Translations under genes and position numbers: made by a program
Assembly (NCBI RefSeq): GCF_048128805.1
Contig: NC_136010.1
Coordinates: 15,866,480 to 15,930,479, forward strand
DNA: 64,000 bases
From: Centroberyx gerrardi
Lineage: Eukaryota > Chordata > Actinopteri > Beryciformes > Berycidae
Reading direction: 5' to 3'
Part shown: in pieces, positions 4,463-64,000 of the stretch
How positions within the stretch are numbered: the first letter of the stretch is position 1
How the letters are laid out: each line of letters opens with the position of its first letter
The notes under the pieces: generated by a model
The model's database searches: none
What the model was told of the DNA's origin: nothing
What the model saw: the letters and a program-made list of their open reading frames with translations, nothing else

Positions 4463-5780
4463 TTAAATACTGAAATGGTTATGGCAGATTGTGTCTCTGA
4501 GAACTCGATCGTCTCTGTGGTCAAGAAGGCCAAGCGGACGATCTTCCTCAGGGTCACTGTCCACAGGGTGAGGGCATCTCTCTCGCCTTATTGTGGCAAT
4601 GTTGTGGAGTACCACACATGTCACAATGATGTCACATACCCTGTCTGGGGTGACCCTAAGCCCACGCAGGCACTGGAACCTGGCCTTGAGGATGCCAAAG
4701 GTCATCTCTATTCTTGCTCTTGTCCTGCATTGGGCCAGGTTGAAGCGCGTTTGTGGTCCAGGCTCAGGGTGAGGATAGGGGGTCATCAGGTTGGGCAGGC
4801 AGGGGTAGCCTCTGTCCCCAAGGAGAAGACCATTGAAATGTCCTATAATCACATTGGAGGGGGAGGGGGGAGGGGGGAGGGGGGGGGGGGGGGGCAGTTA
4901 ATTGTATATACAATCTAATTAAGTCAAAGTAAGATCTTAAACATTGCCCTCGGAAAAGTGACATAGCCTGTTCAAATTTGTTGCACAAGGTGGACTCGCG
5001 GTAAATCCTGGAGTCATGCACAGACCCTGGCCATTTGGCCTCCACATTGGTGATGAGACTGTCTGCATCACATATTACCTTGACAGTGGAAAAGAGTAAT
5101 GAGTTGCAAAATATTGTGAAATGAAACCTTGAATTGGAATAAAATATTCTTCCATTACCTGCACGTTTATGCTGTGGAAAGATTTCCTATTAACATAATC
5201 TCCTTCATTGACTGAAGGAGCTGCAATTGGAATATGGGTGCAGTCTATGCAGCCGATGACACTTGGAAATCCTGAAAAAGATTATTATTCATGGTATTAA
5301 TTTCTCAATGTCTAAATCCTTTTGATAGATTTGTAGTTAAAACTGACCAACCTGCGATTCTGTGGAATTCCTCTTTAAGTTCACAGATTTATGCCCTGGG
5401 AACATGACAAAAATGTGCAAAAAACGTTTAAGTGCCAGGCACACTTTTCTGACTGCCCTACACACGGTTGCTTTTCCTATCTGTTCTGCATCTCCAATGT
5501 TATATAGAAAGGTTCCAGTGGCAAAGAAACGGAGGGCAATGCATAAAGTCTGTACAGAAGTGAGGGTGAATCCACGGTGAGTGATATTAGAAATGTGAGG
5601 CTGAAGAAGGCTATTGAGATAAATGATGGACTCTCTGGAAAAACGGTAACGCTCGCGAAGATATTCAGGTGGGTAAGACAAAATATCTGGACGCGGTCTA
5701 ATCACCCTCTCACGACGTAAAGCCCTACGAATTATTTGTGCCTCTATATCGACGGGATCTTCCATGAAAGGGCAAGCCAT
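4463..5780 (-). pseudogene. HARBI1-like Harbinger transposase/nuclease, broken
   Basis: This is the DDE nuclease that cuts and joins the transposon. Exon 1 runs down from the ATG at 5780 and starts MACPFMEDPVDIEAQIIRRA, followed by the helix-turn-helix part. An exon at about 5162-5272 holds the first catalytic Asp in [16 protein letters not shown]. The next, at about 4950-5085, holds the second in WPGSVHDSRIY. The last, at about 4463-4856, holds the catalytic Glu in RTRARIEMTFGILK and ends at the stop 4463-4465. All three acidic residues are present. Exon 1 is frameshifted near 5385: HKSVNLKRNS appears where a LKEEFHRIAG-type frame is expected. A poly-G tract lies at the start of the last exon. 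Confidence 0.8.
4856..4894 (+). repeat. Poly-G / G-rich tract
   Basis: A nearly pure guanine run of about 39 bases, broken by single adenines, sits at an intron-exon edge inside the Harbinger nuclease gene. It could form a G-quadruplex on the plus strand. It is also a likely place for length error in sequencing or assembly. Confidence 0.85.
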
Positions 5781-6142
5781 TTTCGAGACAAGTTGAATGA
5801 ACTGAACTCTGTGATAAATGCTACAGGCTCAGTCAGGTTTAACTCAAGTAAGCCTCAACTAAACCTGCCACAGAGCAGGTTAGTTTCAGAACATAAGTTG
5901 CCATAGTAACGGATCTAGACTTACTCTGATCTCGGTTTTTGGAACAAATTTGGCAATTTGTAAAGCACAAAGAGGGAGAAAACGACAGTCAGAGGAGTTT
6001 GGGGAGTTATTTTGTTGGCTCACTCTCTTGAAAATGTGTTTAAAGGGAGTGAGCCTTTATAAAAACTCCAGAGGTACGTATGTAAAGAAAAATGGTAGTA
6101 GTAGCACGATTGTTGGAGCTGAGGCACTTCCATTGTAGTCAG

Positions 6143-12149: not shown

Positions 12150-13770
12150 TTCTCATTCCCAACTCGTCCTATGTTGACTCTTTGTCAAATCCCTTGGCGT
12201 CGCTATAACGACGCTAAAGGTACCCTTCTGCGTCTGTATAGGATGCACCGGGTGTTCCATAGACTCCATGGTAAAGCCCCTCGTGGCACGCCTGCAACTT
12301 TCTCTCCTGGACCACAGTCTGGCGTACAATTTCTGTGTCACGGTGTCTCTTGTCGTGACTCTAGTTTTCCTTGTGTTTCTCTGTGTTCCCTGCCTCCCTT
12401 GTGTCTCCGCCTCCCTGGTCTGTCTCTCTGTGTTAGTCTGTGTCTGTGTCTGTGCCAACGTCGGATGAAGACCAGCGCCTGCATTTACTGCGGTCAGGAA
12501 GGTCACTTCCTGGCAGCATGTCCGCTCCGGCCAAAAGAGGAGGCTCGTCAGTGACGGTGGGGGTACTGATGAGCCATACCACCTTCTCTTCTTCAAATTC
12601 CTGCGTTCGTATGCAGTTCCATGCTTCCCTGCTCTGGAGAGAAGATTCCATCCCTGTGCTTGCTCTGGTTGATTTCGGCGCCGATGCCAATTTCATCGAC
12701 GCCACACTAGTTTCTCAAGCTGGTATATCCACCGAGGCTCTCCCTACTACGCTGGACGCCAATGCTCTGGATGGCAGACTCCTGGCATGGGTCACCCACA
12801 GCTCTGTACCCCTCACCCTCCTCATTTTGGGAAACCACCAGGAGGCCATTCAGCTCCACGTTATTTCCTCTCCTCTCGCTCCTGTGGTTCTGGGTTGGCC
12901 CTGGTTAGAGTTGCATAACCCTCATATAGATTGGTCTACGGGTTCAGTGGTGAGTTGGAGCATCTTCTGTCATTCTCATTGCCTCCAATCTGCTCTGGCC
13001 CCCGGTGAGTCCGCTGTCTCTCCCTCACCTGAGCCCCCTGATCTCTCCTCTGTGCCCACTGAGTACCATGATTTGGGAGAGGTATTCAGTAAACAGCGGG
13101 CTCTCTCCTTACCTCCTCACCAGCCGTATGACTGCGCCATCAATCTACTACCTGGTGATGCCCTTCGGTGTGACCAACTCTCCCGCCGTCTTCCAGGCCC
13201 TCGTCAACGACGTCCTCCGAGACATGCTGAACCGCTTCATCTTCGTATACCTAGATGACATCCTGATCTTCTCTCGTGACATGGAGGAACACGCTCAGCA
13301 TGTCCGGTTAGTGCTCCGTCGCCTACTTGAAAACAAGCTGTTTGTGAAAGCCGAGAAACGTGAATTTCATAAGTCTTCTGTGAGTTTCCCGGGCTGCATT
13401 ATTGAGCAGGGACAGGTGAAGATGGATCCGGCCAAGATCCAGGCACTGGCGGAGTGGACGAGGCCCACCACCCGGAAGCAACTCCAGGGTTTCCTGGGAT
13501 TCTTGAGTTTCCTGGAACTGTTCAAGCCCTGTTTCCACATGCTTCGGGAGTACAACGTTTGCATGTGTTTGGATCTGGCTGCAGTCGGCCTCACTCGCCA
13601 TTTTCCTGCATCGCCCTCATCAGGTCTACCCATCACAAACTCTGTCATCAATCATGAGTACTGTCTATGCACTTGCACTGCGTTATTTTTGTTTTTGCCT
13701 TGCTCGGAGCAAGTGAAGTGGACACAATATCTTCATCTTAAAGGCCTCTACGCACCCGAGCAATGACTCA
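12150..13770 (+). mobile_element. Ty3/gypsy retrotransposon fossil (partial gag-pol)
   Basis: The parts appear in Ty3/gypsy order on plus. There is a CCHC zinc knuckle (CIYCGQEGHFLAACP, about 12478-12522), an aspartic-protease-like segment with DFGADANFIDA (about 12671-12703), and reverse transcriptase with [16 protein letters not shown] and the YLDDILIF catalytic box (about 13155-13275). The start of the connection toward RNase H is at about 13450-13510. RNase H proper, integrase and paired LTRs were not found, so it is a broken internal fragment with several breaks and missing pieces. Its readable motifs suggest moderate rather than ancient age. It lies in the spacer between the sulfotransferase inverted arms. 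Confidence 0.85.
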
Positions 13771-19454: not shown

Positions 19455-19660
19455 TGCTGCTACAATGGAAAAAGGATACTAATAGGAACGCTACAGCGTT
19501 CTAAGACGGGCACCTTCTTACATTACTGTAAGAAGGTGCTCCTTGGTCGAAAAATAGGGGAAAAGCAAGAATTGTCAAAAAAAGGCGAATCCAAGGCACT
19601 CTTCATATGATTAAAAAGCTTTAATGAAAGGCTAGTTCATAGTCGAACAGATAAAATCAA

Positions 19661-19698
19661 GCCAACATGTTTCGACCACACACGGCCTTCGTCAGGGC
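19661..19698 (-). ncRNA. Hammerhead-ribozyme-like core, left arm
   Basis: Read on minus, this is the same 38-nt segment as in the right arm: CTGACGA, a GGCC...GGTC stem, then GAAAC and a short ACATGT. The family is known to carry minimal hammerhead motifs in its terminal repeats. Activity is not shown by sequence. Confidence 0.6.
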
Positions 19699-19866
19699 AT
19701 AGCAATGAAAGCAGTTCACCTCACATACCATATATAACATAGGTTGACATTAGTCTAATAACAGTCAGCTGGTGAGGTAGTAAGGCAATTACCAGGTAAG
19801 GCCATCAATATTGACCTATCACCACCAGAGGTCAGTGTATACATCTATCTATGAACAAACCGATAA

Positions 19867-19924
19867 CTGTAAAAAAGACAGAGTCACCATTGGATTCACA
19901 ATGGTGACTCTGTCTTTTTTACAG
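19867..19924. repeat. Perfect 26-bp stem, 6-nt loop hairpin
   Basis: The segment 19867-19892 (ctgtaaaaaagacagagtca...) is the exact reverse complement of 19899-19924, with loop gattca. It sits next to the inner end of the left Penelope-like arm and may mark the point where the inverted copy was joined. Confidence 0.95.
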
Positions 19925-20284
19925 CTATTAGTATAGATCATGTCCCTTTAACCTCTAGAAGAGGGGATAGACAGAGAACACTCAACCAAAAAGAGAGCCG
20001 CTGGATCCATAAGCTCCAGGCTATGGTGCTTCCTGGTCTGAATGACTCTATTGACATGGTTTCTTTTTTATAGACTTATCTGATTTATATATTGTGTGTG
20101 TATGTGTTGACATGACATGTATGTTTGTTCATAGATAGATGTATACACTGACCTCTGGTGGTGATAGGTCAATATTGATGGCCTTACCTGGTAATTGCCT
20201 TACTACCTCACCAGCTGACTGTTATTAGACTAATGTCAACCTATGTTATATATGGTATGTGAGGTGAACTGCTTTCATTGCTAT

Positions 20285-20322
20285 GCCCTGACGAAGGCCG
20301 TGTGTGGTCGAAACATGTTGGC
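20285..20322 (+). ncRNA. Hammerhead-ribozyme-like core, right arm
   Basis: In order: GCC (stem I side), CTGACGA (matches the invariant CUGANGA), GGCC-GTGTGT-GGTC (stem II with loop), GAAA (invariant), a short self-complementary ACATGT (minimal stem III), then GGC closing stem I against GCC. All catalytic core bases of the hammerhead fold are present. A very short stem III is typical of ribozymes in Penelope-like elements, which may work as dimers. Confidence 0.65.
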
Positions 20323-20740
20323 TTGATTTTATCTGTTCGACTATGAACTAGCCTTTCATTAAAGCTTTTTATTCATATGAAGAGTGCCTTGGATTCGCCT
20401 TTTTTTGACAATTGCTGCTACAATGGAGTTTAATAGGAGAACAATGTTCAGCTATCTAAAACATAAACCGATTAAACTAAACTAAACATAAACTAACACC
20501 GGTTTTTGGTGTTAGTCTCTCAGAACCAAAGAGCAAAGGGCTTCTTTCTAGACTCACCATTTTGCACCAACATTCAACAATCATACAGGGAGAAATCCAT
20601 CATTGAAGAGGGAGAGATACCAACTTCCCAACCTACATTAGGCCCAATAGTCCACAATGCAGTGCAGCCACACTGTTGTGTTTTGTGTAAGGGGCGTAAT
20701 TCTTGCTTCATCTCAATTGACGACAACAGCTATCACTATT

Positions 20741-25989: not shown

Positions 25990-30490
<4,501 letters not shown>

Positions 30491-44972: not shown

Positions 44973-46088
44973 TCACAGTCCCTGCTCCAGCCCCAGAGCC
45001 GTCCCAAGCATGGCCCTGACTTTGCAGACCCCCAAGGAAGCGTGTAGGCTCAGCCAGGAGCAGGGGGGTGACGAATGCACATCAGCCCAGTAGCGCAGCA
45101 TCTCCCTGGGTGGGATGTGATGGATGGACACCATGGCCTGATAGCAGCAGCGCCCGTATGGCACACCCGGCCCACCAGAGAAGAGGGGACAGTGTGAGGG
45201 CAGCACCCCGGCCGTACGGGCACACAGGCCCACAAACACATCCTCAGGGGGCAGAGGCGTGGATAAAGGCGATGCAGCGGCTGCCAGAGACACTTTGAGC
45301 AAAGCAGAGCGGGACAGGACATAGGCTGTACCACTGCAATAGTCTGGAAAGACAGAGGGAGGGTAAGCTCCGGATGGGAGGTAGTGCTTGCTGTCCGGGT
45401 CCCGGTCCGGAGCCACGTGGAGATGCACCCTGCCGAGGTACAGGTCTCCTTGTTCGTAGGGGTTTCGGCTCCTGTTCAGGAAGTGCAGCAGGGCGCTCGG
45501 GTTGAACAGGACATCATCGTCCACTTTGGCCATGAAGTGGGCCTGAGGGCAGAACCTGCGGGCCCAGCCCAGCATGGACAGGGTCTTCAGCGTCAGGTTG
45601 GAATAGGTGTCCACAAAACGGCCCTGGATCAGGTCTCCTCGCTCACGGGCCTCCTCTATCAGCAGCTTGGACAGTCCGGGGTCAGACGCCACACCCACCA
45701 TGAACAGGGTCATGACCCGGAGGCCCCTCACCTCGACCTCCCCACCCCAAGTGTCCCTGACAGCCTGGCGAGCTCTCTGATTGGCAGGAGCCGAGGTAAC
45801 CATAGTGATGAGGTATGGCTTGGCACGCTGGCAGACAAGCGGGCTGGGCATGAGCAGGAACTCCTCGGGTCTGGTAGGAGGGACGCTCTGCGGGGGGATG
45901 ATGCCGGCGTGCGGCTCCACCACGGCGTTCATGCTCATAGAGGTGACCCATGATTCAATGAGGTCCACGAAGAGCAGCGCGAACAGCGCCGCGGCCACTA
46001 TCACCGCGCAGAGAAAAGGCAAAAGCCCGAGCCTGTTCCCTCGCTTTCCAAACCGGGGCTTACACACCCAGAGCCCCCGTCCCACCAT
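44973..46088 (-). CDS. b3galt4: Beta-1,3-galactosyltransferase 4-like
   Basis: A Golgi type II membrane enzyme. In mammals B3GALT4 adds beta-1,3-galactose to GM2-type gangliosides (GM1/GD1b synthase). Single coding exon of 371 residues. I chose the ATG at 46088 (MVGRGLWVCKPRFGKRG); the frame is open a little further upstream but has no earlier ATG. A short basic cytosolic tail is followed by a membrane anchor at about residues 21-41 (LLPFLCAVIVAAALFALLFV). The GT31 domain has RQAVRDTWGG, NLTLKTLSMLGWA, the metal-binding KVDDDVLFN, YLGRVH, the PPEDVFVGLCA box and a C-terminal RCCYQA. This end, with CSW...LGVCKVRAM, matches B3GALT4 rather than other family members. The neighbouring wdr46 supports it. 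Confidence 0.9.
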   Translation of the reverse strand: MVGRGLWVCKPRFGKRGNRLGLLPFLCAVIVAAALFALLFVDLIESWVTSMSMNAVVEPHAGIIPPQSVPPTRPEEFLLMPSPLVCQRAKPYLITMVTSAPANQRARQAVRDTWGGEVEVRGLRVMTLFMVGVASDPGLSKLLIEEARERGDLIQGRFVDTYSNLTLKTLSMLGWARRFCPQAHFMAKVDDDVLFNPSALLHFLNRSRNPYEQGDLYLGRVHLHVAPDRDPDSKHYLPSGAYPPSVFPDYCSGTAYVLSRSALLKVSLAAAASPLSTPLPPEDVFVGLCARTAGVLPSHCPLFSGGPGVPYGRCCYQAMVSIHHIPPREMLRYWADVHSSPPCSWLSLHASLGVCKVRAMLGTALGLEQGL

Positions 46089-48845
46089 GACCAACCTCCA
46101 CAGTGACTGCACGGCTCTGTAGCTACAACTCACCCCGTCTCTGTCTTGCTTCCTTTGTCTCGAAGGCTATAAGTACTCTTCTGCCATTCCGTTAGGGTGT
46201 CTCTGCGTGTGTGTGTGTGTGTGTGTGTCCGCACCCTTGATCTCTTCCTTTACCCTTGATCAGAGGTTCAGATCCTCCGCAGCAGGCTGCCAGGATGTGC
46301 CAGGATGTGGCGGAGAGGCTGGTACCCTCGGTACTGCAGCCGCATCACTTTTGACAAAAGTGGGATATGCAGTTGCGCAAATGAAACGGTCGATTTGGTA
46401 GACGTAGCCCGGAGCTGTATTTGCCCTTATTCTTCACAATAAAATCTGAATGTGTAGCTGTAAGGGTCGCGACAGAGGAAAAAACACTGTGCCAAATTCC
46501 CACGATCACATCGAGTGTAATAAAAACGCTCCCCGACATGCGTATGCTAATGCTTCTTCTTCAGGGTGTCTCTTTCGTTTCCAGGCTCTGCTGTTACATG
46601 GCAGCGGTTTGAGGCCAGCCCCGCTATTCAGATTGCAAACTGCACGCAGATGTTGCAAGCCGCATTTAGAGCATCCGCTGTCACTAGTCACTTTTGCTGT
46701 AATGTCGGGGCTGCAATGATGCAGTGATCACATCAAGCCACACGAGGCCTGTGTTTTATGTTTATATGCCCAACAGCGTATATATTATTGTTAAATAATA
46801 TCGGTTCGATGGCATTGTTTCATTAATCGAAAAAGAATGATAGGAGCCAATCCTTTAATAAGTTTTAGAAGGCTACTGTACACATATCACTGCAAAAAAA
46901 CATCCCTAAAGTAGCCCAAAGGTCACCAAATATATTACTTTAAGTCCCTATATGGGAATAATATAGCGATTGACAGTGATGGAAGGATATATAAATGTGT
47001 GGGGCGGGAGTGGGGATTACGATTTAGTACACAATCTGAATCATCATGAATATCTTAAATATTACAAATGAAAAGCAACAAAAAGTTCCTGTTTATTCTA
47101 TATCGGAGAGATCTTAGCTCTCACATAGCCTACCTGAGGGGGCATTTCTATAGCATTTGAATGGGCGTGAAGCCGTGCTGTCCACAGACTATTGTTCTTG
47201 CTGTGGTTCTCAATTCAGACTGTAGCCTACATCCAGTCCTGACATAGATCTATACGACACCTGGTGGTAATTCAGCAGTGATGCTTGTTCTATGTCTACT
47301 AACATGCTGTCAAAGTATTCTACATGTGGCATGGCATTTTTGGCACATAAATGTTATATACACGCCCACATTATATAGGCCATGATTGGTTAGACTACCT
47401 AAAATGGAAAAGAAAGTAGTTAACATCAATGTGCAGGCAAATGAATTCAGTGTCTATGAATTCATGTGTTGCTAAACTGTGGTTGTGGTCAGTATAGAGA
47501 ACAGTAGCTACAGAACTGAATGCTAATGGAAAGCAAAGACCAAAAGTGCTTACAGAAAGGGACTTAAGTAGGCCCATGTTCAAAACCTGGTAAGTTGGTT
47601 TCCACTTTCTTGTGATGTTGCTGATGGATGAGTTGGCAGATGTTATATGCAATGTCCCTTCACAGTTAATACTGACTTATGTGTTTGAATCATTTTTAGC
47701 TTCTTTGTCATTTATTTGATGTCCTGAGGATCTGCCACCATCTTAGTGAACCATCAAGATCAGTCAAGGACCACAATGGAAATAAGTTTTCAAAACTTTA
47801 TTGTGTTGTCGTTGACAGGTGCATTATCTTTTTTTTTTTTTTTTTTTTACTGATAGTCAAATAAAATAAAATAAATTAAATACTAATAATTTTGGCAACA
47901 ATACAGTATCTAAATATACAAAAACACTAGTAAAATGAAGTGAAATTTTCATACCCAGAAAACATTTTGATATTCGTTTAACATTTGGGTGCATGTGTAA
48001 AAGTGTGTTTTTGAAAATATCATGCACTTTTGTAACCAACCTTTTTGTATTGGCACAAACATATGTAAGCAATTTACATGGTGTGTTTGCAATTTATGAT
48101 CATATAGCCTACCTAAAGATCACGCATTGAGAACTGGATGTCATATAAGGACTGCTGTCATGGAGGGGACAGGGTGGCTGATTCTTCACTGGTGATACAA
48201 CTTAAGGTCCCAACAACTTTTACCTCTCACTGTATAGGATAATGGGGGTAACCTAGGAATAAATACAAAACACATAAAATAATTGGGTGCCACATAAACA
48301 CCACATTGGGCAACATATCTGATATTGCGATTGGCATATACACACACCATCTGATTGTTCGTTGTTCAGTTACAACTCCATGCAAAAATGACAGAAGTAA
48401 GGATGAATGGAGAAAGCATTAGTACTAAACAAGCTGGAGAGAAGAAGAATCCATGTTGCAATTGGAAGCTGTTAAAGGATAATTCCTGTTATTTCCATGT
48501 GATGTTCAGATGGTTCTTTGGCCTGTGAACAGTCTGAGGTCAAGGTAAAACACACAGGGGGTCACAGGGGCAAGTGTGACATGTTATTTTTGGTCAAATC
48601 AATTTAAAGAAATGTCAATACGTTATTTTATATTAATTGATGATAATTTGAAAAATGTCATCACTTTTGCCCCCATGACTCCCACTCGCTTAGCATTAGC
48701 TGCGGCTAATTTTGCAGATGTTTAATGTTCTTAGACTACTCTAAGGCCAAAGAACCATCACATGAAAATCACTTTAATTATCCTTTAAATGGCTCTCTGG
48801 TCCCAATGATAACTTGGCAATAAAGTCCCTAGACAGGCAGACAGG
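46089..48845. other. Intergenic region b3galt4 to nr2c2
   Basis: The first 600 bp, upstream of b3galt4, is less A+T-rich and holds a short (GT)n at 46206-46228. It probably contains that gene's 5' untranslated sequence and promoter. The rest is A+T-rich with a poly-T run at 47830-47849. No exon was recognised. The two genes are divergent, but 2.7 kb apart. Confidence 0.5.
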
Positions 48846-62199: not shown

Positions 62200-64000
62200 A
62201 CTTACCGTATGTGGCTATAGTAACTAGCTTACTGTTTCGCTCCATACTAACACTAGGGAAATTTAAATTGTAAATAATTGCAACCAGAATATTCTAATCA
62301 TCATCAACTTCAGATAAGACACAAACAAATAGGTTAATCAAATTGGTAAACTCAGTGAGAAATACGATCACACATTTTACTGTAGACAACTTTTTTTATT
62401 AGTGCTGAGATGGAATCTTCTAAAGCTGATAAATTGCCTGATGAAGGTCTGAGTGTCCAAAATATGTTATAATTTTGCAATAAAATGAGTTTTTAATGCA
62501 GAGAAGGTTGCACCTAATCGCTTCCCAACGTAACAAAGTGACCTGCTAACATATTAAAAAGCTACTCAAGTTATTCACATTTGCCACAATACATCATTTA
62601 GAGTTTGAGTTGTTTTGCTTAAACATGTTCTGCTGACAACATAGATTAGTGGTGTGTGATCAACAGCCAACACAAAATACTGCCTGGTCTACGGAGAGAA
62701 ATAGGGACGTTCTGAATGAAAGAAAGCACTATTGCATTCAGATTCATATAAAGACTTAGCAGCACTGTGCGTTATAATACTTGCTGGTACTGTATTGATT
62801 TAGTGTTAATATATTTCTAAATTTTGCTGTGACCTAAGAGGTTGGTGGATCAAGTTAAAAGATGGGGATTATTTTTGTATATACTACAGTGAATTCTTGT
62901 GTCTTATTTACTGTCTTCATGTTGCCTATAATGTGCTGAGTGACCTGGTTAAATCAGCTTTACAACAGTACTGTAAATGGACTTATTAGTTGAAACTATT
63001 GAATGGATAGCATGCTTTACATTCGGGTCAAGACTTGGCAGATAGCATCGAAAAAGAGTAGTGTGTTCAGAGTTCACAGCCTTTATCAGTATGTCCACAT
63101 TTGTAAAAACCAAGAATGAAGGAAGACAAGCCTGGCCACAGGCTCCATAGAAAGACCAGCATCAAATAGCATTTCACAGAGATACCATGAACACATGAAT
63201 CATGCAACCTTACTCAAAGCTAGGCTAATGCATTTATCCTGTGCTTAGTTGGATCAATAGTACCACTGTAAACAGAACAAGAGCACAACCTGTAGGATTT
63301 TGAAAACATTTTGGTTCACTTGGCTCACTGTGGCATTTACCATGCACTTTCTCTTGAATAGAGGTCCAACATGCAACCAGGCCAAGGCCGCCCATGACAG
63401 AGGAGACACACACAAAATGATACATGAACCAAACCCGTTGGTGATGATTTCAACTAAAACATGCAATAGGACAGAGAGTGAAACCTGTGGGTTAACAAGT
63501 GTTAATTTGTATTCAGTTTGTAAAAATGGTGACAACTTTCACTGACAGAAATTAACAGCTGTTAGACCAAACTGTTACTAATGAACACACTTCACGACTT
63601 ATGAGTTACTGTTATAATTATGCAATCCTGTCATGGATTTTGCATTGTAGATGGTGTACCTTTAACTAGGTGTATGATTAAAGATAAAAAACATTTCCTT
63701 GTGATCTCACCATCATAAAGATCCTGTCTGTGTCTGACGGTCACATAACCAGGAGCAATGACCTGTTCCTGTGTACACTGTGCCTTGTGCTTTTCCCATA
63801 CAAATCTATTAAAACAAAGGGTCATTGGCTCTTTAACAACACTTGCAAGTGGTGTGAGTGACTGAATTAGTAATTTAAGTATGTGATAAAATATTATGTA
63901 ACACGATGAATTTCATGGCCAGTATCCTCAAAGTGCTAGGCTGCCCAATCATGGAACATATCCCAATAGTATGTAAGGATAATTCAATTTGTTTCTCATT
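62200..64000. other. Gene-free stretch at window end
   Basis: A+T-rich DNA downstream of mrps25. No exon, RNA gene or named repeat was recognised on either strand; the short open frames here show no family motif. The next gene lies beyond the window. Confidence 0.5.

What the first reader, a model, noticed from the sequence alone, without database searches (positions are those of the whole stretch)
19455..20427. Penelope-like insertion with hammerhead cores in both inverted arms
Two 291-bp arms, almost identical and inverted, each hold the invariant CUGANGA and GAAA blocks with a matching stem II, plus a very short stem III. A C-terminal GIY-YIG-like peptide lies between, and a 15-bp target duplication surrounds all. 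Hammerheads in Penelope-like terminal repeats are known; a head-to-head pair in one truncated insertion offers sense and antisense ribozymes from one locus.
Basis: partly seen in the sequence, partly recalled or inferred. Interest (0 to 1): 0.75.

Follow-up and report, generated by a model that had tools for sequence, protein, structure and literature searches.

The report
Fish retroelement insertion with mirrored ribozymes
A jumping gene of the Penelope type landed here in its well-known back-to-back form, so a small self-cleaving RNA motif appears once on each DNA strand; it is real, but it is an ordinary form of this kind of element.

Summary
Two 290-nt arms (1 mismatch) lie head-to-head at 19571-19860 (-) and 20123-20412 (+) inside a 15-bp target duplication, with the last 59 codons of a Penelope-like ORF between them. 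Each arm carries a minimal type I hammerhead motif. Rfam finds none, but it also missed all six sister loci tested. A covariance model built from other families of this genome ranks the two arms first in the window (28.8 bits, E 1.5e-6). The motif has one extra nucleotide after A9; it recurs across the genome with covarying stems.

The head-to-head form is not special: L053 and L054 share the layout, L014 largely so, and Arkhipova et al. 2013 described it in rotifers. Both window arms share two variants absent from the other aligned copies, so most simply they came from one template. The two ends match two termini that single-arm copies use separately, in line with two reverse-transcription start sites reported for an Anolis Poseidon. 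In either full-length transcript each motif is predicted to be buried in the arm duplex, so a working sense/antisense ribozyme pair is unlikely. Catalysis was not tested. New member of a known kind.

The parts
19455..19469 (.). left target-site duplication (15 bp; its last A may belong to the insert)
   Evidence: exact repeat of 20413-20427
19470..19570 (-). 'tail' beyond the pLTR (on - strand), probably the start of the next ORF unit, ending ...TATCCTTTTT at the target site
   Evidence: homologous tails in L013, L014, L017; L013 ends at ...TATCCTTTTT, L014 at ...TATCCT, L017 at ...TATCC
19571..19860 (-). left pLTR arm (sense on - strand)
   Evidence: 289/290 identical to the right arm
19659..19700 (-). 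minimal type I hammerhead motif of left arm; C3 at 19695, predicted cleavage 3' of 19664 (- strand)
   Evidence: (28.8 bits, E 1.5e-6)
19861..19892 (-). 32-nt sense piece of the ORF joined directly to the pLTR (about 190 nt of ORF end and 3' stretch missing)
19863..19928 (.). junction palindrome: two 30-nt arms (97%), 6-nt loop, at the head-to-head joint
   Evidence: I2
19894..20073 (+). last 59 codons and stop of the Penelope-like ORF (downstream of the GIY-YIG match)
20074..20122 (+). stretch between the stop codon and the pLTR
20123..20412 (+). right pLTR arm, ends at the pLTR terminus ...GACAAT without a tail
20283..20324 (+). minimal type I hammerhead motif of right arm; C3 at 20288, predicted cleavage 3' of 20319
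   Evidence: (28.8 bits, E 1.5e-6)
20413..20427 (.). right target-site duplication

Best explanation
It is a 5'-truncated insertion of a Penelope/Poseidon-type retroelement of a fish-like genome, in the head-to-head (inverted pLTR) form, and each pLTR carries a minimal dimer-type hammerhead motif. Shown: one 15-bp duplication around the whole, so most simply one insertion event; two variants shared by the arms alone, so most simply one template (or one arm copied or converted from the other); one end at the tail terminus and the other at the pLTR terminus. Inferred: the element's endonuclease cut both target strands. Reverse transcription of RNA from one donor began at the tail site on one side. 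The second half began at the pLTR terminus on the other side, or was made by the first cDNA folding back on itself at the junction palindrome. The joined ends gave mirror arms. The hammerheads came along as pLTR passengers. In a normal tandem copy they could pair with the next unit through the palindromic ACAUGU stem III and cleave; here each is faced by its own complement and is probably inactive in any transcript of the whole insert.
For: Single 15-bp TSD. 289/290 arm identity. Two variants shared by both arms and absent from the 12 and 13 other aligned rows that cover those positions. Tail terminus shared, within 5 nt, with L013, L014 and L017; pLTR terminus shared, within 3 nt, with L009-L012, L015, L019, L020. 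Same layout in L053 and L054 (one family) with 16-bp TSDs and a tail at one end only, and in L014 with a 14-bp TSD. Model from other families ranks both arms first. Stem I pairing: 0 of 2000 shuffles reach it. Stem II in the extra-nucleotide register in 36 of 59 strings against at most 27 when shuffled. In print: two RT start sites with the optional tail between them, both strands cut and extended (PMC11167929, main-text section read; passages); inverted pLTRs, tail on one of them, palindromes at the joint (PMC3846280, passages and Discussion).
Against: No catalysis was tested. The extra nucleotide after A9 departs from the textbook core. 23 of the 59 strings form no stem II of three pairs in any register tried, and 12 of 30 motif copies have a stem I run under 3. 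In L014 the tail-less end stops 27 nt inside the pLTR, not at its terminus; L016 and L021 stop about 6 nt early, in the T run. The left half skips about 190 nt that the right half has, and the left and right versions of the ORF piece differ at three sites next to that skip, so a simple copy of one half from the other does not suffice. Two-start priming and fold-back copying are not told apart, and later gene conversion between the arms is not excluded. The family label rests on Pfam matches below the curated cut-offs (RVT_1 E 8.5e-4; GIY-YIG E 0.002-0.004). The genome-wide tail search did not complete.
Confidence: 0.78

Rival explanations
1. Fold-back (self-primed) synthesis: one cDNA, started at the tail, folded back at its 3' end and copied itself; the copy stopped at the pLTR terminus because the tail region was held by the protein or by the RNA.
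For: Junction palindrome with a 6-nt loop; in L053 both arms are 116 nt, 100% alike, with a 7-nt loop, which two independent cDNAs would hardly give; shared private variants; Arkhipova et al. 2013 argue for self-priming from such palindromes, though on an antisense template.
Against: The second half should then contain the tail, and in the window, L053 and L054 it stops at the pLTR terminus, the terminus that tail-less single copies also show; the right half holds about 190 nt that the left half lacks.
Confidence: 0.4
2. Two-ended priming: both cut target strands primed reverse transcription, one at the tail site and one at the pLTR terminus, on RNA(s) of the same donor, and the two cDNAs were joined.
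For: Both termini occur in single-arm copies; the Anolis protein cuts and extends both strands, and its tail spans two start sites; three complete head-to-head insertions (window, and L053 and L054 of one other family) use one terminus of each kind.
Against: Near-symmetric truncation at the joint in L053 and in the window palindrome is unexpected for two independent cDNAs; in L014 the tail-less end stops 27 nt inside the pLTR.
Confidence: 0.45
3. The hammerhead blocks are chance or relic sequence with no ribozyme structure.
For: No Rfam match; the minimum-energy fold of the short segment is not the hammerhead; extra nucleotide after A9; 23 of 59 genome strings without a stem II.
Against: 649 genome matches against 97 for the reversed pattern; 45 against 0 for the narrower one; stem I and stem II pairing beyond shuffles and stem I covariation in 11 selected rows.
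Confidence: 0.08
4. The locus works as a hairpin-RNA source: its transcript folds into a 290-bp duplex that feeds silencing of the element.
For: On both strands all 40 motif positions are predicted to pair with the opposite arm.
Against: No transcription or small-RNA data were looked at; no sign of maintenance was sought.
Confidence: 0.07

Closest known systems
Penelope elements of Adineta vaga with inverted pLTRs (Arkhipova et al. 2013, PMC3846280; passages and Discussion read)
   Same: Inverted pLTRs, TSD, tail on one of the inverted pLTRs, palindromes at the inverted junction, head-to-head order
   Different: Fish-like host; here a hammerhead motif in each arm, variants shared by the two arms, and termini shared with single-arm copies; the word hammerhead does not occur in that paper's main text
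PAc, a Poseidon of Anolis carolinensis (PMC11167929; main-text section read)
   Same: pLTR, tail, GIY-YIG ORF, hammerhead in the pLTR region, two RT start sites, both strands cut and extended
   Different: PAc studied as tandem copies and in vitro; its cut site is 26 bp downstream of its start codon, here the predicted cut is about 58 nt upstream of the first ATG of the frame that runs into the tail (by eye; the true start codon is not known)
Minimal type I hammerheads of Penelope-like elements (Cervera and de la Pena 2014, not held; Lunse et al. 2017, seen only in reference lists; known here through passages of PMC7761336, PMC6466107 and PMC6155905)
   Same: Type I, almost no stem III, palindromic stem III suited to dimers, location in pLTRs
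   Different: One extra nucleotide between A9 and stem II; I could not check whether those papers report it
Chrysanthemum chlorotic mottle viroid plus-strand hammerhead (extra A; figure legend and reference title seen in PMC3705267; place of the extra A recalled)
   Same: A natural hammerhead with one extra nucleotide in the core
   Different: Viroid; the rest recalled, not compared here

Membership tests
Penelope-like retroelement, GIY-YIG type | ORF with reverse transcriptase and C-terminal GIY-YIG domain | tested here: inconclusive
   In sister copies, in the expected order, but below Pfam's curated cut-offs: RVT_1 E 8.5e-4 (L011), GIY-YIG E 0.0022 (L015), 0.004 (L010), 0.034 (L012); several pieces of L011 and L012 gave neither. 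The window keeps only the last 59 codons.
Penelope-like retroelement, GIY-YIG type | pLTRs in direct and/or inverted order, optional tail | tested here: met
Penelope-like retroelement, GIY-YIG type | target-site duplication | tested here: met
   15 bp; 14, 16 and 16 bp in L014, L053, L054
Minimal hammerhead of Penelope-like elements (type I) | CUGANGA and GAAA blocks, A15.1-U16.1, H17 not G, stems I and II, one to a few pairs in stem III | tested here: met
   here stem I has only 3 contiguous pairs and stem II 4 pairs, one of them G-U
Minimal hammerhead of Penelope-like elements (type I) | helices supported by covariation among relatives | tested here: met
   and on 11 selected rows; stem II has no change on both sides
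Minimal hammerhead of Penelope-like elements (type I) | self-cleavage, as a monomer, as a dimer or with protein help | not testable with these tools
   needs a cleavage assay
Canonical hammerhead as modelled in Rfam | score at or above a hammerhead model; stem II directly after A9 | tested here: not met
   no hit; the register without the extra nucleotide pairs in 1 of 59 genome strings
Head-to-head (inverted pLTR) Penelope insertion | outward-facing pLTR 3' ends, tail at one end, palindromic joint, one TSD | tested here: met
   L053 and L054 share the ends and TSD, L053 also a short-looped joint

The most novel reading that the evidence does not exclude
Head-to-head Penelope insertions are a regular product of the element's integration reaction: one end starts at the tail site and the other at the pLTR terminus, both from one donor RNA. 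Such loci would then be readable fossils of two-ended target-primed reverse transcription, and the insertion automatically silences its own ribozyme by placing the antisense arm next to it. (L014, whose tail-less end lies 27 nt inside the pLTR, would be a truncated case.)
Probability: 0.25. Interest if true: 0.5.

Novelty: new member of a known kind. Interest (0 to 1): 0.3.

Why it matters
How Penelope-like elements finish an insertion, and why their repeats are so often inverted, is open. This locus, with two close look-alikes of another family and one partial one in the same genome, ties the two ends of an inverted insertion to two termini that fit the start sites known from in vitro work, and suggests that both arms came from one template. 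It also shows a hammerhead-like motif, hundreds of matches above the reversed control in this genome, that Rfam missed in each of the seven places tested (the window and six sister loci).

Tried and rejected
Rfam was tried at gathering and at permissive thresholds and gave no hammerhead; the same search on six sister loci also gave none, so I dropped 'no Rfam hit' as evidence against. Two separate nested insertions were rejected because of the single TSD and the shared private variants. Splicing as the cause of the about 190-nt skip in the left half was considered and rejected by eye: no AG stands before the joint. Folding the short motif alone does not give a hammerhead as minimum-energy structure; such folds say little about a stem III of two pairs. 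R1 did not hit L053 or L054 at E up to 1: their family has a different, shorter stem II. The miRNA-like Rfam hits around 19854-19956 are far below their gathering scores and reflect the junction palindrome. The third R1 hit in the window, 62433-62481 (E 0.005), lacks an intact GAAA block and is taken as chance or decay; 14 further hits have E 1.5 or more.

Full report
What is there. The insert at 19470-20412 is flanked by an exact 15-bp duplication. On the minus strand it reads: antisense pLTR (20412-20123), antisense ORF end (20122-19894), a short joint, a 32-nt sense ORF piece (19892-19861), sense pLTR (19860-19571), tail (19570-19470). The arms differ at one of 290 positions. The joint is a palindrome of two 30-nt arms, 97% complementary, with a 6-nt loop. 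The left half goes from the short ORF piece straight to the pLTR and lacks about 190 nt that the right half has. The peptide between the arms is 56/59 identical to the end of a sister ORF. In sister copies weak GIY-YIG and RVT_1 matches lie upstream, all below Pfam's cut-offs. The labels Penelope and Poseidon rest on these matches and on the anatomy; the YIDD-type motif that I saw in the sister ORFs is known to me as an RT motif from recall.

Where it lies. The window is part of a 779-Mb genome of 278 contigs. The pLTR matches 15 places, both window arms included, a lower bound by the tool's own words. The ORF search lists 92 matches at 29-100% identity, from 90 of 993 candidates scored. I call the host fish-like from general features only.

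One template. One search aligns the two window arms with 13 further copies or fragments. Both window arms share T for C in the 3' strand of stem II (GGTC for GGCC; the other 12 rows that cover it have C) and TTTCATT for TTTGATT (the other 13 rows have G). The single difference between the arms is private to the right arm. So, most simply, the arms come from one donor RNA, or one was copied from the other; later gene conversion between the arms is not excluded.

Two termini. The left end stops at the tail terminus ...TATCCTTTTT; L013 stops there too, L014 at ...TATCCT and L017 at ...TATCC. The right end stops at the pLTR terminus ...GACAAT; L009-L012, L015, L019 and L020 stop within 3 nt of it without a tail (L009 and L010 lie in a shared 5.3-kb stretch and count as one event). 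L016 and L021 stop about 6 nt earlier, in the T run. The Anolis Poseidon starts reverse transcription at internal sites, and its optional tail is the stretch between two start sites (PMC11167929).

Not a singleton. L014 has inverted arms (221 nt, 97%), a 14-bp TSD (read by eye), a tail at one end and an R1 match in each arm; but its tail-less end stops 27 nt inside the pLTR, and its interior is interrupted by unrelated stretches. The broad hammerhead pattern has 649 matches, of which the tool listed 100; among these I read three neighbouring pairs less than 2 kb apart, all minus-then-plus (by eye), and fetched two of the three. L053 has arms of 116 nt, 100%, with a 7-nt loop, and a 16-bp repeat around the insert; L054 has arms of 727 nt, 100%, and a 16-bp repeat. 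Both carry the motif once per arm, both stop at the pLTR terminus on one side (same place within a few nt) and at the tail terminus on the other (same place within 2 nt); they belong to one family, so they are two events but one family. A further head-to-head pair lies in L033, in another family. Arkhipova et al. 2013 report inverted pLTRs, a tail on one of them, palindromes at the joint and head-to-head order; a curation guide lists inverted pLTRs and short 3' extensions among the peculiarities of individual copies (PMC8969392, passages).

Is the motif a hammerhead? Rfam says nothing, and nothing either on six sister loci, five of which have four or five of five stem I pairs. The pattern CTGANGAAGGCC...GGYCGAAAC has 45 matches in the genome and 0 for the reversed pattern. 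In the 30 distinct motif copies that I held, five of them of the window's family, the stem I run, which the pattern does not ask for, averages 3.5 pairs against 1.81 when partners are shuffled; 0 of 2000 shuffles reach it, and 12 of the 30 have runs under 3. After a crude clustering into 9 families, 1 of 5000 shuffles reaches the observed mean. Model R1 was built from 11 of the 25 rows of other families: of the 19 rows with the shorter stem III, I left out two duplicates and six rows with one to three of five stem I pairs, so the pair counts are favourable by selection. R1 ranks the two window arms first of 64 kb at 28.8 bits, E 1.5e-6. For the broader pattern there are 649 matches against 97 reversed controls. 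Of the 59 distinct strings among the 100 rows listed, stem II forms three pairs in the register with one extra nucleotide in 36 (shuffled mean 17.2, maximum 27), in the textbook register in 1 (which also forms in the other), and in no register in 23; the stem III hexamer is self-complementary in 35 of 59. The window motif has ACATGT, also self-complementary. In the window's own family CUGANGA is intact in 12 of 13 rows that span it (L009 is broken) and GAAAC in 14 of 14, the window's arms included; but most copies are 94-98% alike, and several have changes in stem I, II or III (L012, L016, L017), so this is weak support. R1 finds the motif in 11 of the 14 loci L009-L022 at E below 1, and in neither L053 nor L054. 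I conclude that the motif is a kept RNA structure of the minimal hammerhead type. Whether it cuts is untested.

What it would do. Minimal hammerheads of these elements are reported to work as dimers, with tandem copies pairing through a palindromic stem III (PMC6466107, PMC7761336, passages). The Anolis one showed no cleavage without protein, its mutants still inserted in vitro, and no RNA ends were found at its site. In the head-to-head form the neighbour is antisense, so the insert offers no tandem partner. In the predicted fold of either full-length transcript all 40 motif positions pair with the opposite arm and none within the motif. I therefore expect a silenced passenger, not a working sense/antisense ribozyme pair.

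Literature limits. Full-text searches for hammerheads with Penelope-like elements, for inverted pLTRs, for hammerheads in inverted repeats of retrotransposons and for twin priming brought no paper that, from its listing or the passages I read, discusses hammerheads in inverted Penelope arms; I did not read most of the papers listed. Of the two central papers on these ribozymes, Cervera and de la Pena 2014 is not held, and Lunse et al. 2017 was seen only in reference lists; I did not look it up.

Noticed in passing
window 19470-19570: By eye, the tail of this copy has two near-palindromes turned into perfect ones compared with L014 and L017 (one of about 12 bp around GTAATG; one GAACGC/GCGTTC where they have GCCCTC), as if short template switches had occurred.
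   Followed up: partly
genome G000, rows: Of 59 distinct minimal hammerhead strings, the 36 that form a stem II all do so with one extra nucleotide after A9 (28 A, 5 T, 2 G, 1 C), one of them also without; 23 form none.
   Followed up: partly
L033 1490-1728 (C6:15223160 region): Another family with a head-to-head pair of hammerhead motifs 12 nt apart and a third, direct, decayed copy about 160 nt on.
   Followed up: partly
L010 3148-4557 and L009 3594-4628: Open frame that runs from an SLC6-type transporter exon into the reverse-transcriptase part of this element, inside a stretch of 5.3 kb that the two loci share.
   Followed up: no
C1:22212223-22212251 and C1:27573117-27573145: Hammerhead strings on the same strand as, and about 600-660 nt downstream of, Penelope-like ORF matches of another family (two cases seen by eye, not counted systematically).
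   Followed up: no
window 62433-62481 (+): Third, weak hit of the hammerhead model (E 0.005); the GAAA block is not intact.
   Followed up: partly
window 4463-5828, 12437-13766, 27657-29260, 44973-46166: Open frames that look by eye like a Harbinger-type transposase, a Gypsy-type polyprotein, a LINE reverse transcriptase and a galactosyltransferase-like gene (names recalled, not searched).
   Followed up: no
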